From: Clostridiaceae bacterium
GTDB taxonomy: Bacteria; Bacillota; Clostridia; Lachnospirales; Lachnospiraceae
NCBI GenBank assembly: GCA_910574345.1
Contig: CAJSZV010000029.1
Location: 1-57,313, forward strand
Length of the DNA stretch: 57,313 nucleotides
Direction of reading: 5' to 3'
Part shown: piece after piece, positions 37,276 through 57,224 of the stretch
How positions within the stretch are numbered: position 1 is the stretch's first letter
How the letters are laid out: every line of letters begins with the position of its first letter
Notes under the pieces: model-generated
What the model was told of the DNA's origin: nothing
The model's database searches: none
Seen by the model: the letters and a program-made list of their open reading frames with translations, nothing else
Program-made: the position numbers and the translations under genes

Positions 37276-37289
37276 AGGAGGCGGTAAGA

Positions 37290-39515: not shown

Positions 39516-39992
39516 ATGCAGGAGGAAATAACACAGAAAACGATTGCCCTTGTGATTAAGACCGCAAAACTGGACGCTAACGTGCTGAAAGCGGCGATGA
39601 AGATGTACCTGAACCACCGCAGGCAGAAAGCACAGAGAACGCATGGAAAGACTTCTGTGAAAAAGCTCGTTGGCGAGGGCGTGGGGGTATCGTCCATTGA
39701 AGTTACGGACGGCAACATCAAATCTTTTGAGCGTGTGGCAAAAAAGTACAATGTTGATTTTGCCATAAAAAAAGACAAGACGACAGCCCCGCCCAAGTAC
39801 ATGGTATTTTTCAAGGGCAGGGATGCCGATGCGGTGGCACAGGCATTCAAGGAATTTGTTTATGGTAATGAGAAAAAGAAAGGAAGAGTTTCCCTGCGGG
39901 AGAAGCTGAACCATTTCAAGGATGCAGTATCGCAGGACAAGAACCGGGAACGGAGCCGGGAGAAAAATAAGGACAGGGGGCAGAGCCTATGA
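39516..39992 (+). CDS. pcfB: PcfB family conjugation protein (DUF3801)
   Basis: 158 aa. Matches the PcfB/DUF3801 family found directly before the VirD4/PcfC coupling protein in Gram-positive conjugative systems; PcfB is thought to help present the relaxosome. Start MQEEITQKTIALVIKTAKLDANVLKAAMKMYL with AGGGAGG upstream of 39516. Core VGVSSIEVTDGNIKSFERVAKKYNVDFA; lysine/arginine-rich C-terminus. Overlaps the virD4 start by 4 nt (ATGA). Confidence 0.85.
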   Translation: MQEEITQKTIALVIKTAKLDANVLKAAMKMYLNHRRQKAQRTHGKTSVKKLVGEGVGVSSIEVTDGNIKSFERVAKKYNVDFAIKKDKTTAPPKYMVFFKGRDADAVAQAFKEFVYGNEKKKGRVSLREKLNHFKDAVSQDKNRERSREKNKDRGQSL

Positions 39993-40354
39993 GCAATATT
40001 ATAGGCGGCATAGCCAAAGACTTAAAATCCATTCCGGAGAGCCTCAAGGCAAAAGCCGGGAATGTAGACAAAAAGAAACTTGTCCTGATGAACCTGCCCT
40101 ATGCGCTTGCCGGATATTTCTGCGATAAAGTAGCATGTCTGTGGCGGGTATCGCCGGGGCAGGACGCTTCCGCAAAGATGATGGAGGTCATGGCGGGGCT
40201 GGAAGGCTTATTTTCCAATCCACTGCCGAGTTTTTATCCGACAGACCTGCTGATCGGGGTGTGCTGCGGCATCGCTTTAAGGCTTCTGGTCTATTTCAAA
40301 GCCAAGAACGCCAAGAAGTTCCGGCATGGCATGGAGTACGGCTCCGCAAGGTGA
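39989..40354 (+). pseudogene. virD4: virD4 coupling protein, fragment 1 of 3 (N-terminus)
   Basis: 121 codons encoding the membrane-anchor part of the VirD4/TraG coupling protein: LVLMNLPYALAGYFCDKVA (first membrane span), LPSFYPTDLLIGVCCGIALRLLVYFKAKNAKKFRHGMEYGSAR. The frame ends at TGA 40352-40354, which is not native: IME-A integration put TGA in place of the TGG that resumes at 45602 (WGNAKDIEPY). VirD4 is the ATPase that links the relaxosome to the secretion channel. As it stands, only a membrane stub can be made. Confidence 0.92.
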
Positions 40355-40408
40355 GGTGCATAATCTTAACTGTAAGCAACACCTATATTGACGCAGGAGG
40401 GTATGCAC

Positions 40409-42253
40409 ATGAATGATTACAGCAAAATCACAGCCCTTTACTCCCGCTTATCCGTGGGGGACGAGGACAGGGACGGCGGCGAAAGCAACTCCATACAGAA
40501 CCAGAAGAAATTTCTGGAAAGCTATGCCAGACAGTTAAAATTAACCAATATCCGGCACTACATTGACGATGACGAAAGCGGCAGATTTTTTGACCGTTCT
40601 GCCTACTCCCGCATGATAGAGGACGTGGAAAACGGCAAAGTCGGCGTGTGCATTATGAAAGATATGACCCGTTGGGGGCGCGACTATCTCCAAGTGGGAA
40701 ACGCTATGGAGATTTTCCGCAGAAACAACGTGCGCTTTATCGCGGTAAACAACGGGATAGACAGCGAAAAGCCCGACACATTGGAGTTTGCGCCGTTCAT
40801 CAACATCATGTCAGAGTGGTACGCAAGGGACATCAGCAAGAAAGTAAAAACGGGTATCCGCACAAAAGGCACAAGCGGAAAGCCAATCGCAACCGAAGCC
40901 CCTTACGGATATGTCAAAGACCCCGACAACAAGGATTTTTGGTTGATTGACGAAGAAGCCGCCGAAGTTGTCCGCTTGATTTTCCGCCTGTTTCTGGACG
41001 GGAAAAACCGAAACCAGATTGCCGTATATCTGAAAAATGAGCAAATCCCGACACCCACATTCTACATGAAAGACCGGGGGCGGGGAACGGCAAAAAGCAG
41101 GACGCTGAACGAGGAAAACCGCTACAAATGGAATAAGGCGACCTTGACCCGTATCCTCACAAGGCAGGAGTATTGCGGCGACGTTGTAAACTTCAAGACC
41201 ACAAAGCATTTCCGCGACAAACGAAACCACTATGTAGACAAAAGCCAGTGGCAGATTACCGAAAATGTCCATGCGCCGGTTATCGACCGCACTGATTTTG
41301 AAAACGTACAGCGGATTTTAGAAAACGCCCCTGTCAAGCGACCAAACGGGGACGGGGAAATCCACCCTTTGTCGGGCTTGCTTTTCTGTAAGGACTGCGG
41401 CGCAAAAATGCACATACGGATAGATTACAGGAACGGCGGCAAGCGGCATATCGCCTATTGCAGTGAGTACCACAAGGGAAAAGCCAAAAATCCGAAGTGC
41501 CATTCCCCGCACATCATGGACGCGGATTTACTCATGCAGACCGTTGCGGAAGTGCTGAAAAAAATCGCGGAATACTCCATCAGCAACCGGGCAGACTTTG
41601 AAGCCTTAGTGAAAAAGAGCCTTGCCGTACAGCAGACCGACCAGACGAAGAAACAGCAGAAACGTGTCCCGCAAATCACAACGCGGCTTGAACAAATCGA
41701 AAAGGTTCTGGATAAGCTGTACGAGGATAACGCCCTCGGCACGATTGAGCAAGACCGTTATGAGCAGATGTCGCGGAAGTATTCGGAAGAATATTATACG
41801 CTGAAAGAGGAACTTGCGGAAATCAAAGAACAGCTATCCGCTTTTGAGAACGCGGGAGGGCGGGCGCAGAGGTTTGTGAAGCTGACAGAACGATACGCCG
41901 ATTTTGCCGAACTCACCCCCGCCATTCTCAACGAGTTTATCAGCAGGATTGAAGTGCATGAGCGCGACCAGAAACGGGCGAGATATGCCATTCAGCATAT
42001 CGGGATATACTTCAACCATATCGGCAGATTTGAGAACGAACTGACACAGCTTGCAGAGCCGACAGAGCAGGAAATCAAAAAAATGCGGGAGGAAATCGAA
42101 GAAGCGAAAAAGGAAAAGAGCCGCGCCTACCACCGGGAATATTCCAGAGCCTACCGCGCTAAAAATATTGAAAAGCAACGGGAGTATGACCGTATCAAAG
42201 CGCGGGAATACCGGGCAAGGAAAAAGGCGCAAGCCGCCGCGACTACACAATAA
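40409..42253 (+). CDS. Large serine recombinase of IME-A
   Basis: 614 aa, TnpX/TndX-like site-specific integrase. Catalytic Ser in ALYSRLSVGDEDRDGG (about residue 14), Arg motif MKDMTRWGRDYLQVG (about 79). Recombinase domain with GTSGKPIATEAPYGYVKD, zinc-ribbon LLFCKDCGAKMHIRID...CHSPHI, then a coiled coil and a Lys/Arg/Tyr-rich tail (EKSRAYHREYSRAYRAKN). ATG 40409 lies 8 nt after AGGAGG. The inverted arm repeat at 40386 sits just before this RBS, so the recombinase may repress its own expression. Confidence 0.94.
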   Translation: MNDYSKITALYSRLSVGDEDRDGGESNSIQNQKKFLESYARQLKLTNIRHYIDDDESGRFFDRSAYSRMIEDVENGKVGVCIMKDMTRWGRDYLQVGNAMEIFRRNNVRFIAVNNGIDSEKPDTLEFAPFINIMSEWYARDISKKVKTGIRTKGTSGKPIATEAPYGYVKDPDNKDFWLIDEEAAEVVRLIFRLFLDGKNRNQIAVYLKNEQIPTPTFYMKDRGRGTAKSRTLNEENRYKWNKATLTRILTRQEYCGDVVNFKTTKHFRDKRNHYVDKSQWQITENVHAPVIDRTDFENVQRILENAPVKRPNGDGEIHPLSGLLFCKDCGAKMHIRIDYRNGGKRHIAYCSEYHKGKAKNPKCHSPHIMDADLLMQTVAEVLKKIAEYSISNRADFEALVKKSLAVQQTDQTKKQQKRVPQITTRLEQIEKVLDKLYEDNALGTIEQDRYEQMSRKYSEEYYTLKEELAEIKEQLSAFENAGGRAQRFVKLTERYADFAELTPAILNEFISRIEVHERDQKRARYAIQHIGIYFNHIGRFENELTQLAEPTEQEIKKMREEIEEAKKEKSRAYHREYSRAYRAKNIEKQREYDRIKAREYRARKKAQAAATTQ

Positions 42254-42274
42254 AACCGAATAACCGACAGCCGA

Positions 42275-42307
42275 GAGGGATTTTCCAATTACGGGAAATC
42301 CCTTTTT
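42275..42307 (+). terminator. Terminator after IME-A recombinase
   Basis: GGGATTTTCC (42277-42286) / GGGAAATCCC (42293-42302) followed by TTTTT; the TnpW gene follows directly. Confidence 0.65.
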
Positions 42308-42331
42308 CGCGCCACAGAAAGGAGCGACCTA

Positions 42332-42499
42332 TTGACAGAAAAGAAAGAAACGCCCACCCCGCCCCGAAAGCCGGACGGTATCATCACAACGCAGAGGAAC
42401 GGGCAGACCATTGTTGCGGAGTTGTTTTTCAACCACAGCAGCACAGAAACATTCCGCGACAAGCTGCTGAAAATGATACTTGCCGACAAGCAGGAATAA
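42332..42499 (+). CDS. tnpW: TnpW-family small protein (IME-A)
   Basis: 55 aa from TTG at 42332, with AAAGGAG upstream. KPDGIITTQRNGQTIVAELFFNHSSTETFRDKLLKMI matches the TnpW-type transposon proteins (function unknown) that follow serine recombinases. Its counterpart in IME-B is at 56395. The next 90 nt contain short CATCCAATCC-like direct repeats and no gene. Confidence 0.75.
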   Translation: MTEKKETPTPPRKPDGIITTQRNGQTIVAELFFNHSSTETFRDKLLKMILADKQE

Positions 42500-42592
42500 A
42501 ACGGGAAAACGGTTATCTGTAAAAATCCATTCCATTCCCATCCAATCCTATCCCATCCAATCCATACCAGACATGAAAGGAGCGATTGACCC

Positions 42593-42988
42593 GTGGCAAA
42601 GACCAAAGCCGAAAAAATCACGAGCATTGAGGAAGAAATCCGACAGCTTGAAAACAGGCGCAGACAGCTTGTGCAGGAGCAAAAGGCACAGGAGCGCAAG
42701 GACAGGACAAAACGCCTCTGCCGCCGCATGGGGCTTTTTGAAAGTCTTGTCCCCGACAGCATACCGCTGACAGAGGAACAATTCAAGACATTCCTTGAAA
42801 AAACTGTAATGACCGACCACGCCCGCCGCATACTGGACGAATTGACCGCCCAGAACGCCCCCACAGCCCCCGTACAGGGCACAGAAACGGCGGCACAGGG
42901 TAACACACTACACACCGCCCAAACCGCCCATAAAGCCCGCGAAGGCGGCGCAGACGGGAGCATGAACGGGGGCGGCTTACAAGGGTAA
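42593..42988 (+). CDS. DUF3847 mobilization-associated protein (IME-A)
   Basis: 131 aa from GTG at 42593 (MAKTKAEKITSIEEEIRQLENRRRQL). N-terminal coiled coil then TKRLCRRMGLFESL, the DUF3847 pattern; Ala/Thr/Gly-rich C-terminus. Always next to MobA/L relaxases in this window, with an oriT-like hairpin between, so a MobC-like relaxosome accessory role is inferred. Confidence 0.8.
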   Translation: MAKTKAEKITSIEEEIRQLENRRRQLVQEQKAQERKDRTKRLCRRMGLFESLVPDSIPLTEEQFKTFLEKTVMTDHARRILDELTAQNAPTAPVQGTETAAQGNTLHTAQTAHKAREGGADGSMNGGGLQG

Positions 42989-43004
42989 CGGGCTTACGCC
43001 CCTA

Positions 43005-43054
43005 CCCTTGCCAAAAAGCAAGGGCGCACTTATATACCACATGAGATGTGGTAT
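43005..43054 (-). promoter_or_regulatory. oriT-like site of IME-A (IncQ type, bottom strand)
   Basis: Perfect hairpin ATACCACAT / ATGTGGTAT (43034-43042 / 43046-43054); on the bottom strand it is followed by ATAAGTGCGCCCT (43021-43033), matching the IncQ nick region TAAGTGCGCCCT. A second perfect hairpin CCCTTGC/GCAAGGG (43005-43024) adjoins. It lies 82 nt before the relaxase start. Confidence 0.8.
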
Positions 43055-43135
43055 GTGCGGTCTTGCAGACGGCGTTTTGTGCCTGTCGGCACAAAAGAGA
43101 ACGGCGGGAGTTACCCGCAGAAAGGAGCGCGGCGC

Positions 43136-44542
43136 GTGGCAATCTACCATTGCAGTATCAAAGTCATATCCCGCGGCAAGGGCAAGTCCGCTGTTGCCGC
43201 CGCCGCTTATCGGGCGGGAGAAAAAATCACAAATGAGTTTGACGGAATGACCCACGACTACACCCATAAGGGCGGCGTAGTCCACACCGAGATTTTACTC
43301 CCCGACCACGCCCCCGCCGAGTATGCGGACAGGGCGGTTTTATGGAACGAAGTGGAGAAAATCGAGAAAGCGAAGAACGCCCAACTTGCGCGGGAGATTG
43401 AAATTGCCTTACCCCGTGAACTGACGAGGGAGCAGAGCATTTCCCTTGTCCGCGAGTATGTGAAACGGCATTTTGTGGCGGCGGGAATGTGCGTCGATTT
43501 CGCCATACACGACACAGGCGGCGGCAATCCCCACGCCCACATCATGCTGACAATGCGCCCTTTTGACGAGTGTGGCGAGTGGGGAGCGAAGCAGAAAAAG
43601 GAGTACATTCTTGACAGGAACGGAAACAAAATCTATGACCCGAAAAAGCGGCAGTACAAATGCAAATCCATTCCCGCTACCGACTGGAACGAGCAAACCA
43701 AAGCCGAGGAATGGAGGGCGGCATGGGCGCAACTCTGCAACCAGTGTTTGGAGCAGAACGGACACGCGGAGCGCGTAGACCACCGCAGTTATGAACGGCA
43801 AGGGATAGACCAGATACCCACCGTCCATTTAGGCGTTGCCGCTTCCGCTATGGAGAAGCGGGGAATACACACCGAGCGCGGCGACCTCAACCGCGAAATC
43901 GAAGTGACTAACCAGAAGTTACGGCAGTTAAAGGCGCGTATCTCCAAACTGCAAAACTGGTTAAAGGAAGAAGCCGAGAACACCGAGCCGCCCACCCTTG
44001 CCGACTACATTCAAGGCATTTTGTCACGCAAGGCACAGACGGGAAAATCGGGATATTCACAATCGTTGTATAACCTCAAAGACGCGGCAAATATGCTGAA
44101 TTTCCTGCAAGCTAATAACATCATGGATATGACGGGGCTTGATGAAAAATTCAAGTCTATGATAGGGGAACAACTGGATATTCAAGGGAAACTGAAACCC
44201 GTTGAACGGCGGTTAGGCACTCTGAAAAAGCACTTAGAGCAAGCCGACATTTATTTCAAGTACAAGGGAAAGAAGCCGCTGACCGAAGCCGAGCAAATCT
44301 TGCTTACAGCGGCGAAAGATTATCTTAAAGGAGTGATGAACGGCAAGACCACAATCCCGACAAAGACATGGAAAGAAGAATACACCAAGCTGACAGCCGA
44401 GAGGAAAAGGCTCAATCAGCGGTATCTTGCATTAAAAGAGGAAGTGAAAGAAGCAGAGAAAATCAGAAAGAGCGTTTACAGTATCTTGCGGCAGGAACAG
44501 CGGGAACAACAGCCCCACAGAAAGCAGGATATGGAGCGATAA
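43136..44542 (+). CDS. MobA/MobL relaxase of IME-A
   Basis: 468 aa from GTG 43136 (MAIYHCSIKVISRGKGKSAVAAAAYRAGEK), AAAGGAG upstream. MOBQ-type relaxase: nicks oriT by a catalytic tyrosine and leads the strand into a recipient. Metal-binding HxH motif NPHAHIMLTMRPF (about residue 127); conserved DWNEQTKAEEWR and VHLGVAASAME. The C-terminal half is coiled coil without a primase domain. An upstream in-frame extension to 43046 overlaps the oriT hairpin and is rejected. Confidence 0.93.
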   Translation: MAIYHCSIKVISRGKGKSAVAAAAYRAGEKITNEFDGMTHDYTHKGGVVHTEILLPDHAPAEYADRAVLWNEVEKIEKAKNAQLAREIEIALPRELTREQSISLVREYVKRHFVAAGMCVDFAIHDTGGGNPHAHIMLTMRPFDECGEWGAKQKKEYILDRNGNKIYDPKKRQYKCKSIPATDWNEQTKAEEWRAAWAQLCNQCLEQNGHAERVDHRSYERQGIDQIPTVHLGVAASAMEKRGIHTERGDLNREIEVTNQKLRQLKARISKLQNWLKEEAENTEPPTLADYIQGILSRKAQTGKSGYSQSLYNLKDAANMLNFLQANNIMDMTGLDEKFKSMIGEQLDIQGKLKPVERRLGTLKKHLEQADIYFKYKGKKPLTEAEQILLTAAKDYLKGVMNGKTTIPTKTWKEEYTKLTAERKRLNQRYLALKEEVKEAEKIRKSVYSILRQEQREQQPHRKQDMER

Positions 44543-44625
44543 CAGACAGGGCGGCGGGATAGTCAATACCTATTACCGCCGCCCGGTTTTGGACTTTTAT
44601 TAGACCGATAAACTGGAACTTGTAT

Positions 44626-45039
44626 TTATACAGGTTTAATCAAATGATGTTCAAAAAAGGTTTCAAAGGTATTCGCAGCACCGCCATGTTCAACAATTTT
44701 TCCGTCTATGACTTTATCAATATCCACCCCTGTAATTTCCAAAACTTTATTCGTAGGTGTTATTCCAATAAATTTTCCTTTGTGCGTTCCCCTCATAATA
44801 AATTCTGAAATAACATAATCACCTGCTACATATTGGCGAATAATTTTCATGGTGTAATCGGGATACGTTTTTTTCAGTGCTACAAGATGTTGCTTCATTC
44901 CGTCTATTCCTATGAAAATTTCTTTTTCGCCAGCTCTCTGCACACAATCCTCTGATATGTATTTAGAAAGTTCATTAAGTAAATTTTCTGAAACAATTAC
45001 TTCATAGAAATATTTTACAATGTCTTTATTCTTCATCAT
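44626..45039 (-). CDS. SnoaL-like (NTF2-fold) ester-cyclase family protein, IME-A cargo
   Basis: 137 aa, MMKNKDIVKYFYEVIVSEN...EHHLIKP. NTF2-like fold of the SnoaL/ester cyclase type: IDGMKQHLVALKKTYPDYTMKIIRQYVAGDYVISEFIMRGTHKG split over the middle, with the HGGAANTFETFF ending. Family members range from polyketide cyclases to proteins of unknown activity, and the substrate here is unknown. Visibly AT-rich against GC-rich neighbours and on the opposite strand, so likely a later acquisition. ATG 45039 is chosen; a TTG at 45051 is too close to the RBS. Confidence 0.75.
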   Translation of the reverse strand: MMKNKDIVKYFYEVIVSENLLNELSKYISEDCVQRAGEKEIFIGIDGMKQHLVALKKTYPDYTMKIIRQYVAGDYVISEFIMRGTHKGKFIGITPTNKVLEITGVDIDKVIDGKIVEHGGAANTFETFFEHHLIKPV

Positions 45040-45051
45040 GCATCCCCACAA

Positions 45052-45601
45052 CTTCCTGATTTATCGGTTTGTACTGGAGAAAATTATACCATAGCCAATT
45101 ACGAAAAGCAATCCCGTTCTACGTCCGTTCCGACTATCCAGACCGTCAAGGGACGAGTAGTATTTTTTCGCAAAGAGCGCGAAAAAATCTCCACTCTTAA
45201 ACCCTTGACCGTCTGGATTTTTGCCGTTGCCATTTCGCCGCCGAAAACGGGGAACAGGATTTTTACAATCCTGCCCCGCTTTCGTCTGCTCCATTCTAAC
45301 GGCAAAACCGTCTGCACTACTGCGGCGGCAGTCGTTAGGTTTTGCGGTGGCGCTGCCCCCTCGCCCCCGACCTCTTCCAAAGAACAGAATGGAGTGTTAC
45401 GCAATAGGGCTTGAAAAGGCTTGATTTTTAAGGCGTTGCAGACGCGAAAATCCACAGGGTAAGGGTTTTTATACTACCTACCCACGAAAACGGCTTCTAA
45501 CCGTCCACAGGCGCGTTTTGCGCCCCTTTTCCTGCCCGTTTCCCGCCGCGCCGAAAAGTTTTGCGTCAATAACTTAAAAAAGCACTTGACAAAACGCTTC
45601 A
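45052..45601. other. 550-nt right end of IME-A, rich in nested inverted repeats
   Basis: No protein gene seen. 17-nt arms at 45136-45152 and 45202-45218 (CCAGACCGTCAAGGG region, one mismatch) enclose a TTTTTTCGC/GCGAAAAAA stem. CAGGAT/ATCCTG with flanking GGGG/CCCC is at about 45251-45276. CTCCATTCT (45289) pairs with AGAATGGAG (45386), enclosing GCAAAACC/GGTTTTGC. The arm repeat TGCGTCAATA is at 45562. These could include terminators and recombinase or replication sites. Confidence 0.6.
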
Positions 45602-45835
45602 TGGGGCAACGCAAAGGACATAGAGCCTTACATGGATTCTGTGTTTGAGAACAATATCCTGCTGACGCAGACGGAGCGGCTGATGATGTCGGGCAGGCCG
45701 AAACAGCCAAAGTATGCAAGGAATAAAAATATCCTTGTGATTGGCGGTTCCGGTTCCGGCAAGACGAGGTTTTTTGTAAAACCGAACCTTATGCAGATGC
45801 ATAGCAGCTATGTTGTCACTGACCCGAAGGGTTAA
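45602..45835 (+). pseudogene. virD4: virD4 coupling protein, fragment 2 of 3 (Walker A)
   Basis: Resumes as WGNAKDIEPYMDSVFENNILLTQ and carries the nucleotide-binding loop VIGGSGSGKTRFF and NLMQMHSSYVVTDPK. After DPKG the frame meets a TAA at 45833 supplied by IME-B; the native continuation (GTVLIECGKML) is at 56631. The DPKG turn is conserved in VirD4 proteins. Confidence 0.92.
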
Positions 45836-45901
45836 GATATAGAAGGACAGACAAAGGAAACACCCGAAACTACATAATCCAAAGAGAAAGGAAGGTTTGA
45901 A

Positions 45902-48762: not shown

Positions 48763-48818
48763 CCGTACATAGGAGCCGGAACGGTTCCTATAATTTATCC
48801 AAACAGGAGGACAAGACT

Positions 48819-49364
48819 ATGAAGCTGAACGAACTCACCCAGGAGCAGCGCAACGCCCTCTGCGCCTTTGGGCAGGCCGATCAGGACGCCACGATTGCCA
48901 ACCTCATGATTGCGGGTGCGGCGGCGGTCAAGCCGGAGGCGGCAAAGGTCCTGACGGAGCTGGCCGACCGGCTGTACCATCTGCCCATGAGCGACACCGA
49001 GTACCAGACGCTGTTCTACACGGTGAAGTACCGCAAGGAGCAGGCCATGACCCGCTTGATGCTGGACTACCAGTGCGTGAGCGGCGACATGGAGACCACC
49101 CGCCCTTGGAAGCCCTACGCCAAGCACCTGATCCTCTCCACCTTCGGCAATGAGAACGCCATGAACACCGTCCGCCGCCTGCTGATGGCCGAGAAGGTGA
49201 CGGTGGACCCGGCCATCCGGCAGACCGTCCACGAGCTGGTCTCTGACATTGCGCTTATGGCGGTCTGCTCCCCGCAGAAGTACGAGGCGTATCTGGCGGA
49301 CAGCCGGAGCATTGACGCGGCGTACACGATGGACGGTGACGAGGCGGTCATCCGGCAGAAGTAA
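48819..49364 (+). CDS. IME-B hypothetical protein
   Basis: 181 aa, mostly helical, no recognised domain. ACAGGAGGACAAGACT precedes the ATG. Starts MKLNELTQEQRNALCAFG; ends in DEAVIRQK. It sits between tnpV and the restriction cassette and has the GC-rich codon use of the element backbone, so it is likely a backbone gene rather than cargo. Confidence 0.6.
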   Translation: MKLNELTQEQRNALCAFGQADQDATIANLMIAGAAAVKPEAAKVLTELADRLYHLPMSDTEYQTLFYTVKYRKEQAMTRLMLDYQCVSGDMETTRPWKPYAKHLILSTFGNENAMNTVRRLLMAEKVTVDPAIRQTVHELVSDIALMAVCSPQKYEAYLADSRSIDAAYTMDGDEAVIRQK

Positions 49365-49490
49365 AGGTTTTGTATCGGCGGCGAGAATGTCGGCTGTGTG
49401 GACGATGTTCTTGCCGTTACATATTGAAATGGGTAAGTTCTAAAGAGTATGTCCATTCAGCTAAAAGACGATTTTTTCACAAATTTTCTC

Positions 49491-49519
49491 TTGCAAATGC
49501 GGATGAGGGCGAGTATAAT
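49491..49519 (+). promoter_or_regulatory. Promoter of the Dcm gene
   Basis: TTGCAA (49491-49496), 17-nt spacer, TATAAT (49514-49519). A clear own promoter for the AT-rich restriction cassette. Confidence 0.7.
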
Positions 49520-49560
49520 GATAAATGGAATATTGTGTAGAGAAAGGAGTGAGTGATATC

Positions 49561-50667
49561 ATGCCGTTGTATGCAATTTCCCTGTTTTCCGGCGCAGGTG
49601 GATTTGACCTTGGCATGGAAGCTGCTGGTTTTACGACAAGACTCTGCACAGATATCGACTATCATAGTTGCCAAACTTTGCAGAACAATAAAAATGCTTT
49701 AGCAAATGACCCCCAGCACCCTTTCCTTTCTCATGCTTTCATAAAGCAAAAGAACATCAAAGAATATTCAACAGAAGAGATCTTACACGATGCAGGATTA
49801 GAAAAGGGTGATGTAGCACTTGTCTACGGTGGCCCTCCGTGTCAGAGTTTTTCAGTTTTCGGTCAGCGGAAAGGTATGGATGACCCTCGTGGTACACTTT
49901 TGTGGGATTATCTTCGTGTGATTCGAGAAATCGAGCCAACTTGTTTTGTCTTTGAAAATGTTGCAGGGCTCTTATCAATAGATGACGGGAAAATTTTTCA
50001 GCAGTTTTTACAAGAGTTGTCAAAGGACGAAGCAGGAAATTCAACATATACAACTTCCTATTATCTTCTTGACACTGCATCGTTTGGTGTTCCACAGTAC
50101 CGTTCAAGGGTCATCATCTATGGTGTTAAGAATGGACAAGCAGTTCCTATGCCGAAAAAAACTCATGCGTTGAACGAAGCGGAATTATCAGAAGGACTTC
50201 TTCCAGCTGTTACCGTTGGCGATGCGATTTTAAGTTTGCCCGATCCGCCGTCCACCACCATTGCAAATCATGTTGGACGCGCCCACGGTCAGACGGTTAT
50301 AGACCGATACGCGGCGTTGTCTTTTGGTGAACGTGATTCAAAAACGCGGATTAACAAACTAAATCCAGACAGGCCGAGTTTTACCATTGTTGTTGGTTCT
50401 GACAAAGGAGGGGGGAAGGGCCATGTTCACCCATACTCACCTCGTGAAGTTACACCTCGCGAGTCCGCAAGGCTTCAAACCTTTCCTGACTTTTGGGCTT
50501 TTTCGGGAACAAGTCGGCATCCTATAAGGCAAGTGGGAAACGCAGTTCCGCCCGTGTTTGCCGCCGTAATTGGTGCAAACCTGTTGAGGGAGGCTTTCGG
50601 GGTTGAAAATGTACCAAACTATAATGAGATTCTCCAACGGTTAGGTTTGGACTACCTAATCAAGTAA
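49561..50667 (+). CDS. dcm: DNA cytosine-C5 methyltransferase
   Basis: 368 aa. All main C5-MTase motifs are visible: I SLFSGAGGFDLG (residue 7), IV GGPPCQSF with catalytic Cys94, VI ENV (132-134), VIII QYRSR (179-183), IX/X RESARLQTFPDFWAFSG and RQVGNAVPP. ATG 49561 follows AAAGGAGTG; an ATG at 49525 is upstream of that site. Target sequence unknown. The following genes (restriction enzyme, Vsr) show it protects DNA in a type II system. AT-rich compared with the element backbone. Confidence 0.95.
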   Translation: MPLYAISLFSGAGGFDLGMEAAGFTTRLCTDIDYHSCQTLQNNKNALANDPQHPFLSHAFIKQKNIKEYSTEEILHDAGLEKGDVALVYGGPPCQSFSVFGQRKGMDDPRGTLLWDYLRVIREIEPTCFVFENVAGLLSIDDGKIFQQFLQELSKDEAGNSTYTTSYYLLDTASFGVPQYRSRVIIYGVKNGQAVPMPKKTHALNEAELSEGLLPAVTVGDAILSLPDPPSTTIANHVGRAHGQTVIDRYAALSFGERDSKTRINKLNPDRPSFTIVVGSDKGGGKGHVHPYSPREVTPRESARLQTFPDFWAFSGTSRHPIRQVGNAVPPVFAAVIGANLLREAFGVENVPNYNEILQRLGLDYLIK

Positions 50668-50680
50668 GTCTCATTAGCAG

Positions 50681-50731
50681 ATACAGCGGTAAGGGTGTGT
50701 CGTGTGGCAACTTGAACCGCTGTATTTTCTA
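50681..50731 (+). promoter_or_regulatory. Hairpin between methylase and restriction genes
   Basis: ATACAGCGG (50681-50689) / CCGCTGTAT (50717-50725), perfect 9 bp, then TTTTCT. It could terminate or attenuate transcription into the nuclease gene, keeping methylase in excess; inference. Confidence 0.55.
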
Positions 50732-50747
50732 TATGAGGAGGGTTTTT

Positions 50748-52268
50748 ATGGGACTTCCAGCTAATCCTATAGTTAAAAAGTTCTTTTCAAATAAAATTGA
50801 AAGTTCTCGTCCGGAGTGGGGCGATTACCTTCTGGAAATAGCAGATATTTTTTCAATGTTTGATGGTGAGGAGTTGGATAGGGATTTATTATCTGAACGC
50901 TTTTCTACCATCAGTGGACGGTCACCTTACGCTTTACGAGACGTATCTAATTTCCGGGACGAGTTTGGTGCTTATGGTACATATCTTGGACTATTTCACT
51001 TCAAAATGAGTAATGGACGATGCCAGATACTCCTGTCTAAATCTGCCAAGCATTTTCTTTGCTCGACAGAGCCAGACGTGCAGAGCTTTTGCCGTACACA
51101 GCTTGCTTTATTCCAGTACCCAAACGGAGCAGGTGCCGTTCAACATCGTAATGGAACTATCCGTGCCCAGTCAAATGCGCGGAATGATACCATCAGGGAA
51201 GTAAAAAACGGAGTTAGGATAAATCCATTGAGATTATTATGTCGTGTGGCTGTCACAATGCACGAACTATGTGGAACCTCGTTGGAAAATATTCTTATTC
51301 CATACGAAACAATTTTCATGCTGTTTAATGATGATACTATCAATCATTCTTTTTCTCCATCATTAGAGAGCATCCGGGATGCATTACAGCATTACGCTAA
51401 TAGTAGCTCTCCTGTGTGGGCGCAGGGAGAGGATTTAACAAAGTTCAAGCGCAATTTTCATATAATGACCCGTACAGGAATTTTTTCAAGAAGTTCAGTT
51501 CAAGGGTTGATGCTGGATTCAACGGATTTTCAACGTGCTTACAATTTCGCACAAGCTGTTGCAAATATGAATTGCAATTTTGAAGCCTTTGAGCCTTGCT
51601 ATAATGCCAGCGATATACCTACAGCAGTGACAGATGTAATCACAAGTCCACAGTGGGGTGAATATTATGACGCGCTTTCACTCCCGATGGACATTCTCAC
51701 TCGTTTGTCTGATGATATCGACATTGAGAACATTGATTATTATACGCCACCTCTTGGCACTGTTGAAATTTCGGAAAACCAGTTCCCTGAACTCAAAACT
51801 TTTCGCTCTAATCAGATCAGAGCGTTTGCCCCGTCCGGCAAGCGAATGGACCCTTATGAAACTATTATTCGCCGTGAAAAGGCAAACAGAGAACACGCCA
51901 GAATCCTCAGTATGCTTGCCGCTTTGATTCGGCTGAAGGGATATGAGGCTTTTGAAAACACTTTCATAGACCTCTACTCCAGTTCCCCAGATAATACTTT
52001 CATTTTTGAAGTGAAGTCAAACAATGCAAGGAATACTCTTAGCCAAATTAGAAAAGCGATTGCCCAGCTTTATGAGTATAGATACAGAAGCAAGGCTACC
52101 AACGCAATCCTTTGCATTGTATTGCAGCAAAGACCTCCGCAGGCATGGGTGGAAGATTATTTGTTACACGATAGAGAGATTCTTATGTGTTGGCTGGTCG
52201 ATGATGTTCGTTTGGAATGTCCAGATGAATGCCACGACATACTTTCATCTATGGGAATTGTTCAATGA
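50748..52268 (+). CDS. Putative type II restriction endonuclease
   Basis: 506 aa, no family recognised by name. A PD-(D/E)XK-like core is suggested near the C-terminus: Asp408 or Asp415 in FIDLYSSSPDN followed by FIFEVKS (Glu421, Lys423), then a helix with SQIRKAIAQLYEYR, a common arrangement in restriction nucleases. Position between a C5-methyltransferase and Vsr supports a restriction role. ATG 50748 has GAGGAGGG upstream; an ATG at 50697 lacks this. Recognition site unknown. Alternatively a DNA-binding defence protein. Confidence 0.75.
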   Translation: MGLPANPIVKKFFSNKIESSRPEWGDYLLEIADIFSMFDGEELDRDLLSERFSTISGRSPYALRDVSNFRDEFGAYGTYLGLFHFKMSNGRCQILLSKSAKHFLCSTEPDVQSFCRTQLALFQYPNGAGAVQHRNGTIRAQSNARNDTIREVKNGVRINPLRLLCRVAVTMHELCGTSLENILIPYETIFMLFNDDTINHSFSPSLESIRDALQHYANSSSPVWAQGEDLTKFKRNFHIMTRTGIFSRSSVQGLMLDSTDFQRAYNFAQAVANMNCNFEAFEPCYNASDIPTAVTDVITSPQWGEYYDALSLPMDILTRLSDDIDIENIDYYTPPLGTVEISENQFPELKTFRSNQIRAFAPSGKRMDPYETIIRREKANREHARILSMLAALIRLKGYEAFENTFIDLYSSSPDNTFIFEVKSNNARNTLSQIRKAIAQLYEYRYRSKATNAILCIVLQQRPPQAWVEDYLLHDREILMCWLVDDVRLECPDECHDILSSMGIVQ

Positions 52269-52339
52269 CAGGCAAGAAATATATGGGATATGACTACAAG
52301 GATAGGAAATAAAGACTAACTTTCCAAGGGATGACAAGA

Positions 52340-52810
52340 ATGGGGAGATACACTGACGAGCAAACACATAGAATTATGAGTGCTGTCCATTCAAAGGATA
52401 CAGATATTGAAGTCAGACTTCGTAAGGCTTTGTGGCAAAAGGGCTACCGATACAGAAAGAATGTAAAAAAGCTACCTGGAAAGCCCGATATTGTTTTTAT
52501 GAAATATAAGCTCGCTATTTTTTGTGATGCAGAATTTTGGCATGGAAAAGACTGGGACATTCTCAAGGCTAAACTGCTAAAAGGTAAAAATCCAGAGTAT
52601 TGGGTTCCCAAAATTCAGCGAACTCGTGAACGGGATGCTGAGGCAGAACGAGAGTTACAACTAATGGGCTGGACGGTATTGCGATTTTGGCGGGAAGAAA
52701 TCCTTAAGAATTTAGAGCAGTGTGTTCAAACTATTGAGGATACTTTATTTGAAATTCATTTGGATTGTTATGAATCAGAATATGGAAATGATTATGAAGA
52801 TGATTTGTAG
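52340..52810 (+). CDS. vsr: Very-short-patch repair endonuclease Vsr
   Basis: 156 aa. Cuts 5' of T in T:G mismatches made by deamination of 5-methylcytosine. Signature MSAVHSKDTDIEVRLRKAL, GYRYRKNVKKLPGKPDIVF (catalytic Asp), FCDAEFWHGKDW (family FWHG), YWVPKIQRTRERDAEAERELQLMGWTVLRFW. Preferred start 52340 (MGRYTDEQT) is 9 nt after AAGGG; ATG 52331 is too close. Acidic tail ESEYGNDYEDDL. Confidence 0.93.
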   Translation: MGRYTDEQTHRIMSAVHSKDTDIEVRLRKALWQKGYRYRKNVKKLPGKPDIVFMKYKLAIFCDAEFWHGKDWDILKAKLLKGKNPEYWVPKIQRTRERDAEAERELQLMGWTVLRFWREEILKNLEQCVQTIEDTLFEIHLDCYESEYGNDYEDDL

Positions 52811-52829
52811 TCCCTCGTATATTATGATT

Positions 52830-52864
52830 GCGCTCAACCGCAAAAAGTTGGGCGCTTTTCTTTT
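52830..52864 (+). terminator. Terminator after vsr
   Basis: GCGCTCAAC (52830-52838) / GTTGGGCGC (52847-52855), one G-U, then TTTTCTTTT. Marks the end of the restriction cassette. Confidence 0.8.
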
Positions 52865-52892
52865 GCCCAAAACCAGAGAGGAGGACTGACCC

Positions 52893-53195
52893 ATGAGCGA
52901 CACGCTGGACAAACTCCGGCAGGAACGGGACCGGGCGGAGCGGCATCTTCGCAAAGCCGCCAATGATGAAAAGGCCCTCACCCATGAAATGGCGAGACTG
53001 ACAAGAGCGGAGCGGACGCATCGCCTCTGCACCCGCGGCGGTATGCTGGAGACCTTCATCCGGGAACCGTCCCTGCTGACCGACGATGATGTGATGGAAC
53101 TGCTGACCTTCCTGTTCCACGGCGAGGCGGCGCAGAAAAAGCTGAGGATGTTGATAGAGCGCCGGAGGGAAACGGCTGGACGGGAGACTTACTGA
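52893..53195 (+). CDS. DUF3847 mobilization-associated protein (IME-B)
   Basis: 100 aa. MSDTLDKLRQERDRAERHLRK coiled coil, then MARLTRAERTHRLCTRGGMLETF, the DUF3847 pattern. Same position relative to oriT and relaxase as the IME-A homologue, but sequence and length differ. Relaxosome accessory role inferred. Confidence 0.82.
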   Translation: MSDTLDKLRQERDRAERHLRKAANDEKALTHEMARLTRAERTHRLCTRGGMLETFIREPSLLTDDDVMELLTFLFHGEAAQKKLRMLIERRRETAGRETY

Positions 53196-53197
53196 AA

Positions 53198-53243
53198 CCC
53201 TCGCCTCCGGGTGAGGGCGCAACTATACACCGATAAATCGGTG
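53198..53243 (-). promoter_or_regulatory. oriT-like site of IME-B (IncQ type, bottom strand)
   Basis: Hairpin CACCGAT / ATCGGTG (53228-53234 / 53237-53243); on the bottom strand followed by TATAGTTGCGCCCT (53214-53227). An adjoining CCCTC/GAGGG stem (53198-53202 / 53213-53217) mirrors IME-A. The GC-rich gap up to the relaxase (about 240 nt) holds no gene. Confidence 0.78.
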
Positions 53244-53485
53244 CGTTGCGTTCTCCGAAGGCCCTTGCAGGGAGCTTGATGTCCATTCCGGCATGGCCTC
53301 CATTTCCATCCAGGGGGCGCTGCGCTCCCCCTGCGCTGGCTCCGCCAGCTACCCCTTTGTGGACTTGCGGAGGCGGAGACAAACCGCTTCGCAATTTATC
53401 TCCGCCTCCGCAAGTGTTGTTATGACCGATTGGCAGAGCAGCCGGTCGATCTTTTTTGTTGGCAGCGAAAGGAGGTTTGCCCACC

Positions 53486-55051
53486 ATGCCATGCCCACAC
53501 TACGACATAAAAATCGTGCAGCGGAGCAAGCGGCAGTCCGCTGTTGCCGCCGCCGCTTACCAGTCCGGCGACCGGCTCTTTTCTGAATACGACCAGCGGC
53601 AGAAGTCCTATTCCGAGAAACAGGGCATCATCCATACGGAGATACTCCTGCCGGAAAACGCCCCGCCCGGATACGCAGACCGCAACATTCTATGGAACGC
53701 CGTGGAAGCTGTGGAGAACCAGTGGAACGCCCAGCTTGCCCGGCGTTTTATCATGGCCCTGCCGAGGGAGTTGTCACGGGACGAACAAATCCGGCTCATG
53801 CGGGAATACTGCCAGGCGCAGTTTGTCTCCAAGGGCATGATTGCCGATTTTGCCATTCACAACAAGGGCGACGGCAATCCCCACGCCCATATCCTGCTCA
53901 CCCTCCGCCCGATGGATGAACAGGGACGATGGCTGCCGAAGTGCCGCAAGGAGTATGTGCTTGACGAGAACGGCCAGCGCATCAAAATGAAAAACGGTGA
54001 ATGGAAAAGCCGGAGGGTCAACACCGTTGACTGGAATGAGCAGAAGTACGGCGAGATATGGCGGCATGAATGGGAGGTCATACAGAACCGATACCTTGAA
54101 GCGGCCGGACGGCAGGAGCGGGTCGATCTGCGCTCCTTTGAACGGCAGAACAATCCCCACGCCCCGCAGGTCCACCTCGGCCCGTCTGCCTCCGCTATGG
54201 AGCGCAGGGGCATACAGACCAACCTCGGCAATCTGAACCGGGACATCGTATCCGCCAACCGCCTCTTTGACTCCATCCGCCGGGTCATCCGGGATTTGAA
54301 AAACTGGCTGGCCGACCTCTCCGAAAAAATCGGGGAGCAGGCGGCGCAAAAGCCGGAGGAACAGAACCTTGCCGAAGTCCTCTCCGCCTATATGACGCTC
54401 CGCCATGACGGTCGGTCTGACTGGTCGAGGGCCGGACAGACAAAGGCCCAAGTCAACGATCTGAAGAAGATGTCGGCGGCGATCATCTTTTTGCAGTCCC
54501 ACGATATTACCACCGTTCAGAAATTGGGAGAGCATCTGAACGAGGCCGGCACAACAGCAAACGGCCTGCGTAATCAAATCAGGAGCAACGACAGACGCAC
54601 TTCTACCATTGACGCCATCATCGAGGCCGCCGCAGTTGTCCGGGAGTTGAAGCCTCTCCACGACCAGTATATGAAGATCGGCTGGAAGTCAAAAAAGGAG
54701 AAGTTCGCCGGGGAACACGCTGACGAGTTGCAGAGGTTCAACCGGGCGTTCCGTTTGCTGAAAAAATACGAGGTCGCTCTCCCACTTGATGTGAAACCGC
54801 TCCGGGCAGAACAGGCCGCATTGAAGAAATCCAGCGCAGACCTGACTGCCCAGCTTGAGGCGGTACAAAGCAATCTTGACGAGTTGAAGCAAGTACGCTG
54901 GTGCGTCCGTCAAGTCCTGCCGGACGCTCTGCCCACCATCATTGACGGGAAGAAGTCGGTGCTGGAACAAATCGAAGCCAATCAGCGGAAAGCACAGCAG
55001 GCGCGGGAGCAGAGCCAGACCAGGCAGAGAAAACAGAATATAGAGCATTGA
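53486..55051 (+). CDS. MobA/MobL relaxase of IME-B
   Basis: 521 aa from ATG 53486 (MPCPHYDIKIVQRSKRQSAV...), AAAGGAGG upstream. MOBQ relaxase with SAVAAAAYQSGD, HTEILLPENAP, metal motif NPHAHILLTLRPM (about residue 132), VHLGPSASAMERRG. Long helical C-terminus, no primase. Only moderately similar to the IME-A relaxase, so the two elements are not recent duplicates. Followed directly by a terminator. Confidence 0.93.
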   Translation: MPCPHYDIKIVQRSKRQSAVAAAAYQSGDRLFSEYDQRQKSYSEKQGIIHTEILLPENAPPGYADRNILWNAVEAVENQWNAQLARRFIMALPRELSRDEQIRLMREYCQAQFVSKGMIADFAIHNKGDGNPHAHILLTLRPMDEQGRWLPKCRKEYVLDENGQRIKMKNGEWKSRRVNTVDWNEQKYGEIWRHEWEVIQNRYLEAAGRQERVDLRSFERQNNPHAPQVHLGPSASAMERRGIQTNLGNLNRDIVSANRLFDSIRRVIRDLKNWLADLSEKIGEQAAQKPEEQNLAEVLSAYMTLRHDGRSDWSRAGQTKAQVNDLKKMSAAIIFLQSHDITTVQKLGEHLNEAGTTANGLRNQIRSNDRRTSTIDAIIEAAAVVRELKPLHDQYMKIGWKSKKEKFAGEHADELQRFNRAFRLLKKYEVALPLDVKPLRAEQAALKKSSADLTAQLEAVQSNLDELKQVRWCVRQVLPDALPTIIDGKKSVLEQIEANQRKAQQAREQSQTRQRKQNIEH

Positions 55052-55052
55052 C

Positions 55053-55092
55053 AAGCGTCTGATTTTTGAAAAGAAAGTCAGACGCTTTTTTC
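55053..55092 (+). terminator. Terminator after IME-B relaxase
   Basis: AAGCGTCTGA (55053-55062) / TCAGACGCTT (55078-55087), perfect 10 bp, then TTTTT. Confidence 0.88.
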
Positions 55093-55096
55093 ATGT

Positions 55097-55126
55097 CCGG
55101 GCATACTGTCCTTCCAGTATGCCCGG
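55097..55126. repeat. Perfect 12-bp hairpin before the RepA-like gene
   Basis: CCGGGCATACTG (55097-55108) / CAGTATGCCCGG (55115-55126), 6-nt loop, no T-run. Possible operator or replication site next to the helicase-like gene. Confidence 0.6.
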
Positions 55127-55214
55127 TCTACATACCGCAGGAAGGGAGGCATCCAAGAGCAGAACAGTGCATTGGCGGTATGCCATCTCACAGGAAAGGA
55201 AGTGAACACCCAAA

Positions 55215-56279
55215 ATGAACGAGTATCAAAATCCCCCTTCGGAACAGCAGCCGGTCATCAGAAAGCCGAGCCTCCAAACGGTCTCCATGACGGAACTCTA
55301 TGACATGGCCTTCCCGCCCAGAAGCCCGGTTATTGAAGGACTGCTTTACAGCGGGACCTATCTTTTTGCCGGTTCCCCGAAGATTGGCAAGTCCTTCTTC
55401 ATGTCCCAACTGGGCTACCATGTCGCCACCGGCACTTCCCTCTGGGACTACCCTGTCAGGCAAGGCTCTGTCCTCTATCTGGCGTTGGAGGACGATTACG
55501 GCAGACTGCAAGGGCGGCTCAACCAGATGTTTGGCGTGGAGGCCGTGGACGGTCTGCACTTTGCGACAAAGGCGAGAACGCTGGCTGACGGGCTGAACGG
55601 GCAGTTGGAGGAATTTCTCCAATGCCACCCAGACACAAGGCTTATCATCGTGGACACTCTGCAAAAGGTTCGGGAGGCTGGCAACGAGAATTACAGCTAT
55701 TCGATGGATTACCAGAACATCACCGCCCTAAAGCAGTTCAGCGACAGAAACAATGTCGCCATTCTGGTGGTACACCACACAAGGAAGATGGAGGCCAGCG
55801 ACAGCTTCGATATGATTTCCGGCACAAACGGTCTGCTGGGGGCGGCGGACGGAGCGTTCATCCTGCAAAAGAAAAAGCGCACCGACCCGACCGCTACTAT
55901 GCAGATTGTCGGGCGGGACCAGCAGGACCAAGAACTCACCTTGGCGTTCCATCAGGAGCGATGTGTCTGGGAACTGACGAGGGCGGAGAAGCCCATCATC
56001 AAGAAAACCGTGGAGCCGTTCATTCAGAAAATCGCCGGGTTCATGTCCGGGCGCAGCGAGTGGACGGGGACCGCCAGCGAACTCATTGATCTTGTGCCGG
56101 ACATCGGCATGAAGGCCAACACGCTAACGAGGAAGCTGAATGTCAATGTGTCGAGCCTGTTCAACGATTTCGGCATCGTCTATATCGGCAACCAGCGAAC
56201 CAGCGACCGCAAGACTTTCACTCTGCTCCGAAAACAGGAGCCGGAGGCCAGTGACGGTATGACGATGAATGACGATTAA
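55215..56279 (+). CDS. RepA-like hexameric AAA/RecA-fold ATPase
   Basis: 354 aa. Walker A FAGSPKIGKSFF (about residue 52), LALEDDYGRLQGRL (about 88), Walker B LIIVDTLQKV (about 142), sensor LVVHHTRK, as in AAA_25/RepA helicases of plasmids such as RSF1010. The C-terminal part resembles a winged helix. In IMEs such proteins are thought to support replication of the excised circle. RBS GGAAAGGAAG precedes the ATG. It is not part of the mobilization module. Confidence 0.87.
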   Translation: MNEYQNPPSEQQPVIRKPSLQTVSMTELYDMAFPPRSPVIEGLLYSGTYLFAGSPKIGKSFFMSQLGYHVATGTSLWDYPVRQGSVLYLALEDDYGRLQGRLNQMFGVEAVDGLHFATKARTLADGLNGQLEEFLQCHPDTRLIIVDTLQKVREAGNENYSYSMDYQNITALKQFSDRNNVAILVVHHTRKMEASDSFDMISGTNGLLGAADGAFILQKKKRTDPTATMQIVGRDQQDQELTLAFHQERCVWELTRAEKPIIKKTVEPFIQKIAGFMSGRSEWTGTASELIDLVPDIGMKANTLTRKLNVNVSSLFNDFGIVYIGNQRTSDRKTFTLLRKQEPEASDGMTMNDD

Positions 56280-56394
56280 ATCAGGTATGCCCTACCCTAT
56301 AAAATACCGTCATTTATCGTCACTATCGTCATTGAGGATTACACACAGGGAGGCATCCGGCGGGGTGTCTCCCGTTTTTTATGGAGGTATGCAG

Positions 56395-56574
56395 ATGAGC
56401 AACGACACGACCAAGACCACGCAGACCAACAACAAGCAGGACGGCAGCTTCTCCATGCAGATGGACAACACCACCTATGTCATCGGTCTCCATTTCAGCA
56501 AGACAAGCAAGGAAACGCTGGAGGACAAGGTGAAGCGGCTTATCCAACGCGATGTGAAGGACGGCAATTTCTAA
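56395..56574 (+). CDS. tnpW: TnpW-family small protein (IME-B)
   Basis: 59 aa. QDGSFSMQMDNTTYVIGLHFSKTSKETLEDKVKRLI is the TnpW pattern, equivalent to the IME-A protein at 42332, but placed at the far end of the element instead of behind the recombinase. ATG 56395 follows GGAGG. Function unknown. Confidence 0.78.
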   Translation: MSNDTTKTTQTNNKQDGSFSMQMDNTTYVIGLHFSKTSKETLEDKVKRLIQRDVKDGNF

Positions 56575-56624
56575 GCCAGAAAATTTTTGCGGGTGTTCCC
56601 TTTTTCTATCTTGACAAAACTCAT

Positions 56625-57224
56625 CCGAAAGGCACTGTCTTAATCGAGTGCGGAAAGATGCTCAAAAAGGGCGGCTATAAGATAAAAGTCCTCAATACCA
56701 TAAACTTTGCAAAGTCCATGCACTACAATCCTTTCGCCTATTTACGGAGCGAAAAGGACATTCTGAAACTCGTAAACACGATTATTGTCAACACCAAAGG
56801 GGAGGGGCAGCAATCCGGAGAGGATTTTTGGGTGAAAGCTGAGAAGCTGTATTACACAGCCCTGATCGCCTATATCTGGTACGAAGCCCCGGAGGAAGAA
56901 CAGAATTTCGCAATGCTGATTGATATGATTGACGCAAGCGAAGCAAGGGAAGATGACGAGAATTTTAAGAACGCTGTTGACCTGCTGTTTGAGGAACTGG
57001 AGGAAAAAGACCCGAATCATTTCGCTGTCCGCCAATATAAAAAATATAAACTTGCGGCGGGCAAGACAGCTAAATCTATCCTGATTAGCTGCGGTGCAAG
57101 ATTAGCGCCATTTGACATAAAGGAGCTGCGTGACCTTATGGAGTATGACGATCTGGAACTTGACACGCTTGGGGAACAGAAAACAGCATTGTTCGTCATT
57201 ATTTCAGATACGGACGCCACCTTT
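56625..57224 (+). pseudogene. virD4: virD4 coupling protein, fragment 3 of 3 (to the intron)
   Basis: Frame resumes PKGTVLIECGKMLKKGGYKIKVLNTINFAKSMHYNPFAYL and continues with the ATPase body (EDFWVKAEKLYYTALIAYIW, NHFAVRQYKKYKLAAGKTAKSILISCGARLAPF, ALFVIISDTDATF). It ends exactly at 57224, where a group II intron begins; in relatives the protein continues with NFIV. The rest of virD4 must lie beyond the window. Confidence 0.92.

What the first reader, a model, noticed from the sequence alone, without database searches (positions are those of the whole stretch)
39989..57224. One coupling-protein gene (virD4) carries three successive mobile insertions
Joining 39989-40351, 45602-45828 and 56630-57224 gives a continuous 395-codon VirD4 frame with membrane spans, Walker A and ATPase body. 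Two unrelated serine-recombinase mobilizable elements and a group II intron interrupt it, one after another rather than nested in each other. Both IMEs hit family-conserved motifs (GSAR/WG and DPKG), so their targets should occur in many ICEs. I infer that conserved virD4 codons act as docking sites for parasites of conjugation.
Basis: partly seen in the sequence, partly recalled or inferred. Interest (0 to 1): 0.93.

Follow-up and report, generated by a model that had tools for sequence, protein, structure and literature searches.

The report
Conjugation pump gene riddled by hitchhikers
In a bacterium that is likely a gut species, the gene for the DNA pump (coupling protein) of a conjugative element is cut by two predicted hitchhiking mobile elements and by the start of a likely self-splicing intron; relatives of the first hitchhiker sit at the same codon of this gene in dozens of other bacteria, and they would probably jump out, and so heal the pump, when the element's transfer genes are switched on.

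Summary
virD4 of a conjugative element is split into three collinear pieces by IME1 (5,250 bp, core TG), IME2 (10,801 bp, core AA) and the start of a likely group II intron; the contig ends 89 bp into it. The recombinases are distinct but homologous (37% identity). A second conjugative element in the genome carries an IME1 relative at the same codon and a different IME at IME2's codon. IME1's recombinase clade lies at virD4 [ST]AR|W in 70 of 76 readable named loci; one identical 5,208-bp element lies in three virD4 genes only 30-44% identical. I map three IME codons and six intron positions (five Rfam-supported).

Prior art: serine-integrase IMEs in virD4/traG, two per gene, and excision on induction as a model, are published (PMC5357655, PMC5704250, PMC3158075, PMC7168690; passages seen).

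What I add: in IME1's clade the crossover separates a -35 (TTGACA, right end) from a -10 (CATAAT, left end) that would lie 17 bp apart in the circle; the other two IME families are similar but weaker. Integrated recombinases would then depend on transfer-operon read-through: untested.

The parts
35625..38375 (+). ParA, ParB and RepA_N/DUF6017 genes near the left end of the host conjugative element
   Evidence: Pfam/NCBIfam
39480..39992 (+). DUF3801 gene directly upstream of virD4
   Evidence: PF12687; found upstream of virD4 in five other contigs of this genome
39989..40351 (+). virD4 piece a, 121 codons, ends at GSAR
40352..45601 (+). IME1 (predicted), 5,250 bp; core TG at 40352-40353 and 45602-45603
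40359..40364 (+). CATAAT, -10-like box in the left end of IME1
   Evidence: 69 of 70 related left ends; position checked
40388..42253 (+). SR1, large serine recombinase (ATG at 40409)
   Evidence: PF00239, PF07508, PF13408, PF14287
43046..44542 (+). relaxase of IME1, MobQ-type
   Evidence: PF03389; NF041496 over cut-off
45586..45591 (+). TTGACA, -35-like box at the right end of IME1
   Evidence: 56 of 56 right-end rows
45602..45828 (+). virD4 piece b with Walker A, ends in DPK
45827..56627 (+). IME2 (predicted), 10,801 bp; core AA at 45827-45828 and 56628-56629
45833..45838 (+). TAAGAT, weak -10-like box in the left end of IME2
45902..48313 (+). SR2, large serine recombinase
48310..48687 (+). 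TnpV
   Evidence: PF14198
49525..52810 (+). C5 cytosine methylase, 523-aa ORF and Vsr nicking endonuclease: cargo of IME2
53456..55051 (+). relaxase of IME2, MobA/MobL
   Evidence: PF03389
55215..56574 (+). AAA_25 protein and TnpW
56611..56616 (+). TTGACA, -35-like box at the right end of IME2
   Evidence: 8 of 8 S2 IME right ends listed there
56630..57224 (+). virD4 piece c (ATPase body)
   Evidence: PF02534
57225..57313 (+). 5' end of a likely group II intron (GTGCG...), cut by the contig end
   Evidence: same start at the same codon on C10; matching intron 3' end and next exon on C42

Best explanation
virD4 of this conjugative element is an insertion hot spot: two predicted mobilizable elements with separate serine recombinases occupy two of three codons where related recombinases insert again and again, a likely group II intron occupies a further position, and the two elements would probably leave when the transfer operon is transcribed, healing the gene. 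Shown from sequence: collinear pieces; 2-bp cores; repeated insertion at the same codons in very different virD4 genes; recombinase genes facing the same way as virD4 and starting 55 bp (IME1) and 73 bp (IME2) after the core; a -35-like box at the right end and a -10-like box at the left end whose distances to the core add up to 17 bp. Inferred: (1) in the excised circle the two boxes meet and form the recombinase promoter, as the title of Lyras and Rood (2000) says for Tn4451; (2) while integrated the recombinase lacks a -35 and is read only from the transfer-operon transcript running through truncated virD4; (3) induction of transfer therefore makes recombinase, excises the IME, restores virD4 and gives the IME's relaxase a working pump; (4) the circle promoter then drives integration into another virD4. 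With two IMEs in one gene both must leave; the intron would be spliced from RNA.
For: Site fidelity: S1 70 of 76 readable named loci and 6 of 6 matches at 74% identity or more in 61 genomes; S2 8 of 12; S3 4 of 10, with 4 of the other 6 lacking upstream sequence. Repeated, probably recent insertion: 67 flanks fall into 44 clusters at 90% and 17 at 70% amino-acid identity; one identical 5,208-bp element in three virD4 genes 30-44% identical. Boxes: TTGACA in 56 of 56 S1 right-end rows (about 51 distinct places), CATAAT in 69 of 70 S1 left ends; in virD4 the hexamer 17 bp upstream matches TTGACA at 1 of 6 bases in all 70, best over spacers 15-19 is 2-4 of 6. S2: TTGACA in 8 of 8 right ends; spacing 16-18 where both ends are known. 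S3: spacing 17 in the three elements with both ends known. No + strand terminator-like site from 39400 to 41277, and no more promoter-like sites than in shuffles (4 against 6.2). Pieces stay open: 70 of 70 a pieces, 44 of 46 b pieces (the other 2 show a further insertion; 5 of the 46 are short); median dN/dS 0.25-0.27 interrupted against 0.36-0.38 in 20 intact genes (few pairs). Literature: Tn6104 excises from Tn6103.
Against: No excision, transcription or transfer was measured here. The terminal hexamers may be recombinase binding sites rather than promoter parts. -10 boxes of S2 and S3 elements match TATAAT at 3-4 of 6 bases, except one S2 type (6 of 6). An S3 leader folds into a strong hairpin (z about -5) that could stop read-through. 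6 of 76 S1-clade elements lie outside virD4 and cannot use its operon. Co-orientation rests on three sites only. One promoter-like site (TTGACG-18-AATGAT, 9 of 12) lies in the IME1 left end, overlapping the ATG of SR1. Excision of Tn6105 and Tn6106, and transfer of Tn6103, were not detected by others. Open pieces are also expected if insertions are recent.
Confidence: 0.55

Rival explanations
1. Safe-harbour graveyard: insertion in virD4 costs the cell nothing but kills this conjugative element for good; further elements pile into a dead gene, and the IMEs travel with the help of other, intact elements in the same cell.
For: The genome holds other VirD4-family genes with an unbroken frame (C80, 564 aa; C32, 619 aa). 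Stacks of insertions are common: three IMEs in G030, two in G062 and G170, two introns in G076. Transfer of Tn6103 with its insertions was not detected.
Against: Pieces are open and dN/dS is no higher than in intact genes, though recent insertion explains that too; Tn6104 was shown to excise.
Confidence: 0.35
2. Split coupling protein: the membrane part (piece a) and the ATPase body (b and c) are made as separate polypeptides that still work together.
For: S1 falls between the N-terminal part and the Walker A body.
Against: S2, S3 and most intron positions cut inside the ATPase body; piece b of the window has no start codon in frame at the junction (sequence).
Confidence: 0.04
3. Assembly artefact: unrelated pieces were placed side by side.
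For: Several contigs of this draft break inside virD4 (C3, C10, C29, C33).
Against: The same order is seen in other assemblies, some in one long contig (G030:C37 2.3 Mb, G057:C1 3.2 Mb, G095:C1 6.9 Mb), and at S1 in 70 named loci.
Confidence: 0.03

Closest known systems
Streptococcal IMEs in traG (IME_Sco1050_traG_site1 and _site2; Coluzzi 2017 PMC5357655, Guedon 2017 PMC5704250; passages and one section read)
   Same: Serine-integrase IMEs inside the VirD4 gene of Tn5252-superfamily elements, up to two per gene; excision on induction proposed.
   Different: Exact codons were not given in the passages seen, so identity with S1-S3 is untested. Here three IME codons, intron positions and a split promoter-like arrangement are added.
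Tn6104/Tn6105 in Tn6103 of C. difficile R20291 (Brouwer 2011 PMC3158075; passages read)
   Same: Two mobilizable transposons in one gene (ORF 1743; Guedon's table lists Tn6104 in traG); TnpX-like recombinase, TnpV, mobA/mobL; 2-bp repeat; excision of Tn6104 shown.
   Different: Other cargo; no intron in the same gene mentioned in the passages seen; no promoter analysis in them.
Tn4451/TnpX (Lyras and Rood 2000; title only, seen in a reference list)
   Same: Serine recombinase with TnpV and TnpW relatives in IME2; promoter formed in the circle.
   Different: Tn4451 inserts at many sites (Guedon table); here insertion is tied to virD4 codons.
IMEs in traG of Tn1549-family elements of S. suis (PMC7168690; figure legend seen)
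   Same: IMEs in the same gene.
   Different: Other hosts; codons not given in what I saw.
Ll.LtrB group II intron in a relaxase gene (PMC6003770; title and start of abstract)
   Same: Group II intron in a conjugation gene.
   Different: Here the coupling-protein gene, at several positions.

Membership tests
VirD4/TraG coupling protein (host gene) | PF02534 domain and collinear alignment with intact relatives | tested here: met
   (piece a only by alignment, no Pfam match)
VirD4/TraG coupling protein (host gene) | Mating-pore genes downstream | tested here: inconclusive
   found on contig C42, but C42 may continue C29 or C10
Integrative and mobilizable element (IME1, IME2) | Own integrase and own relaxase | tested here: met
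Integrative and mobilizable element (IME1, IME2) | No coupling protein or mating-pore genes of its own | tested here: inconclusive
   none among the ORFs scanned within the elements; small ORFs were not scanned
Integrative and mobilizable element (IME1, IME2) | Short direct repeats at the ends and a clean empty site | tested here: met
   TG and AA repeats; natural uninterrupted copies such as C10 at S1 and S2
Integrative and mobilizable element (IME1, IME2) | Excision and mobilization | not testable with these tools
   needs cultures
Tn4451/TnpX-type element (IME2) | Large serine recombinase, TnpV, TnpW, MobA/MobL | tested here: met
Tn4451/TnpX-type element (IME2) | Promoter formed in the circle | tested here: inconclusive
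   TTGACA-17-TAAGAT by distance sum; no expression data
Group II intron (57225 onward) | GTGYG start and domain V-VI at the 3' end | tested here: inconclusive
   start present; RF00029 on C42; not joined in the assembly; no Rfam hit in the window
Group II intron (57225 onward) | Intron-encoded reverse transcriptase | not testable with these tools
   would lie beyond the contig end

The most novel reading that the evidence does not exclude
The virD4-targeting hitchhikers use integration itself as a switch: crossing over into virD4 breaks their recombinase promoter in two, so an integrated copy is silent and listens through its disrupted host gene for transcription of the transfer operon; that transcript makes recombinase, excises the parasite and repairs the very pump it needs. 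Stacked parasites turn one gene into a multi-key lock that opens only when transfer begins. Three recombinase lineages share this design at three codons.
Probability: 0.35. Interest if true: 0.78.

Novelty: new variant of a known kind. Interest (0 to 1): 0.52.

Why it matters
Coupling proteins decide which DNA leaves a cell by conjugation. If parasites of conjugation have settled on a few codons of this gene, a large share of related virD4 genes (33 of 71 copied rows-groups interrupted or cut) may be off until a parasite leaves, and draft genomes will misreport such elements as broken or lose them at contig ends. The split-promoter reading makes the published but untested proposal that induction triggers excision testable with simple reporters.

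Tried and rejected
Conserved-motif claim in wide windows: not significant within the conserved core (p 0.11 for three IME sites, 0.33 for nine sites at six residues each side); kept only for two residues each side, one of several widths tried. Co-orientation as statistics: only three sites, so not used as proof. dN/dS as evidence for repeated excision: rejected, recent insertion explains it. Ungapped flank identity understates similarity; replaced by aligned identity. Plasmid records: 14 with a match, best 42% identity, not followed. Rfam on the intron start in the window: nothing. The insertion at 379 (C3, C33, L059; starts GTGCAG) looks intron-like but has no Rfam support (L011 and L014 searched, no match). 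Literature searches for an intron in virD4/traG showed no clear case in the listings; I opened none of those papers, and most subscription papers are not held. The 38-to-33 count rests on 93 rows that I copied by hand from the truncated list and judged to be this virD4 lineage; rows of more distant VirD4 were dropped, and some of the 33 may only be cut by contig ends. Cargo genes of the related named elements were not examined. The host organism was not identified; that its relatives are largely gut species is my reading of the record titles.
Full report
WHAT IS THERE. The window is a whole contig (C29, 57,313 bp) of a 5.6-Mb draft in 106 contigs. The genes scanned up to about 34.7 kb look like ordinary chromosomal ones. 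From about 35.6 kb a conjugative element follows: ParA, ParB, RepA_N/DUF6017, DUF3801, virD4. virD4 is in three pieces that align in order with the intact VirD4 on C80. Contig C42, which begins with an intron end and the next virD4 exon, goes on with TrbL/VirB6-like, TraG P-loop, DNA methylase and M23/NlpC genes, as expected of a mating-pore operon.

THE TWO IMES. IME1 runs from 40352 to 45601 with core TG repeated at 45602; IME2 from 45827 to 56627 with core AA repeated at 56628. Each has a large serine recombinase first, facing the same way as virD4, and a MobA/MobL-family relaxase. The recombinases are distinct lineages (37% identity) of one family.

SAME CODONS AGAIN. In the same genome C3 carries a second conjugative element with an IME1 relative (recombinase 97%) at the same virD4 codon and a different IME (recombinase 41% to SR2, 44%) at IME2's codon; C47 has a third IME1 relative at S1. 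A scan of named genomes with SR1 found 153 relatives and kept the best 80, at 82-97% identity. Four have too little flank; of the other 76, 70 are in virD4 at [ST]AR|W and 6 are elsewhere (L056, L067, L070, L076, L118, L122; L067 has masked sequence next to it). The 67 with at least 150 bp of flank fall into 44 clusters at 90% and 17 at 70% amino-acid identity. L059, L060 and L061 carry one identical 5,208-bp element in virD4 genes 30-44% identical to each other beside the junction, so these insertions must be separate and are probably recent. IME2-type recombinases: 8 of 12 loci at the DPK codon, 4 not next to virD4. Eight named IME1-type loci are also interrupted just after DP (L047, L058, L060, L063, L064, L066, L081, L093), the same double as in the window, and six at S3 (L078, L090, L099, L101, L104, L116).

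MAP OF THE GENE. With the C80 protein as ruler, IMEs enter at 138 (S1), 213 (S2) and 356 (S3). Group II introns with Rfam support lie at 199, 215, 246, 282 and 410, and an unverified intron-like insertion at 379. Stacks: G030 has three IMEs, at S1, S2 and S3, one behind the other in one contig; G062 and G170 have S2 and S3; G076 two introns; C10 an intron at 246 and the start of one at 410. For S3-type recombinases, 4 of 10 loci have virD4 directly upstream, 4 have little or no upstream sequence, 2 are elsewhere; a more distant one (L206) is also elsewhere. In 120 genomes of the family 57 had a VirD4 match; of 71 virD4 loci built from 93 rows that I copied from the truncated list, 38 are whole and 33 interrupted or cut.

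A PROMOTER CUT BY THE CROSSOVER. S1 right ends read TTGACA, ten bases, core TG: 56 of 56 rows, about 51 distinct places once repeats of one place are removed by hand. S1 left ends read core TG, five bases, CATAAT: 69 of 70, the other CATACT. The sum is a 17-bp spacer. In the integrated state the virD4 hexamer at that distance matches TTGACA at one base of six in all 70; the best over spacers 15-19 is 2 (49 loci), 3 (16) or 4 (5) of six. S2 right ends have TTGACA in 8 of 8 IME rows; with the left ends IME2 gives 17-TAAGAT, the C3 and G062 type 16-TATAAT, G170 17-TAGATT, G129 18-TATTTT, G030 and G057 17-TAACCT (weak). S3 right ends: TTGACA in 3 of 5 rows, TTGACT and TTTACA in the others; the three with both ends give 17-TATGCT. 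Tn4451 is published as forming such a promoter (title only). The ends may also be recombinase binding sites, and conservation alone cannot tell the two apart.

HOW IT MOST LIKELY WORKS. Shown: anatomy, site fidelity, repeated insertion, hexamers. Inferred: that integrated copies are read only by read-through from the transfer operon, that induction then excises them, and that the healed pump exports host element and hitchhiker. Excision on induction was proposed by Coluzzi 2017 and repeated by Guedon 2017. The split-promoter, read-through form of it did not appear in the passages and listings that I saw; that is not a full search. For it: no + strand terminator-like site from 39400 to 41277 and open pieces. 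Against it: no measurement, weak -10 boxes outside S1, a strong leader hairpin in S3 elements, a promoter-like site no better than shuffles in the IME1 left end, and six S1-clade elements outside virD4.

WHAT IS KNOWN. IMEs with serine integrases in traG of Tn5252-superfamily elements, at two sites (PMC5357655 passages; PMC5704250 passages and section 13); two mobilizable elements in ORF 1743 of Tn6103, Tn6104 shown to excise, Tn6105 and Tn6106 not, and transfer of Tn6103 not demonstrated (PMC3158075 passages); IMEs in traG of Tn1549-family elements in S. suis (PMC7168690, figure legend). So this is a richly documented variant of a known kind, not a new kind.

Noticed in passing
window 49525-52810: IME2 carries a C5 cytosine methylase, a 523-aa ORF without a match in Pfam, NCBIfam or PADLOC, and a Vsr nicking endonuclease: possibly a restriction-modification cassette.
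   Followed up: partly
L142 about 14211-14350, L144 about 11997-12100, L147: Left leaders of S3-type elements fold into a long hairpin (two tested, z about -5.3 and -5.4); the arms differ between elements yet still look complementary by eye.
   Followed up: partly
L092:17893-18237 and L045 near 16035: Further insertions in virD4 piece b, one inside the Walker A motif (about 340 bp), outside the sites mapped here.
   Followed up: no
L012:8466-11123 (C10): A complete group II intron with a 630-aa reverse transcriptase at virD4 position 246.
   Followed up: yes
L056, L067, L070, L076, L118, L122: SR1-clade elements outside virD4, with the same TG core; L122 is from Bifidobacterium boum.
   Followed up: no
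L014:721-5490 (C33): Three serine recombinase genes in tandem on the minus strand, upstream of a RepA and virD4 of another conjugative element.
   Followed up: no
G095:C1 (L150-L153, L171): One genome has five virD4 genes with a reverse-transcriptase insertion at position 199/200.
   Followed up: partly
window 44626-45051, minus strand: A SnoaL-like gene lies at the right end of IME1; role unknown.
   Followed up: no
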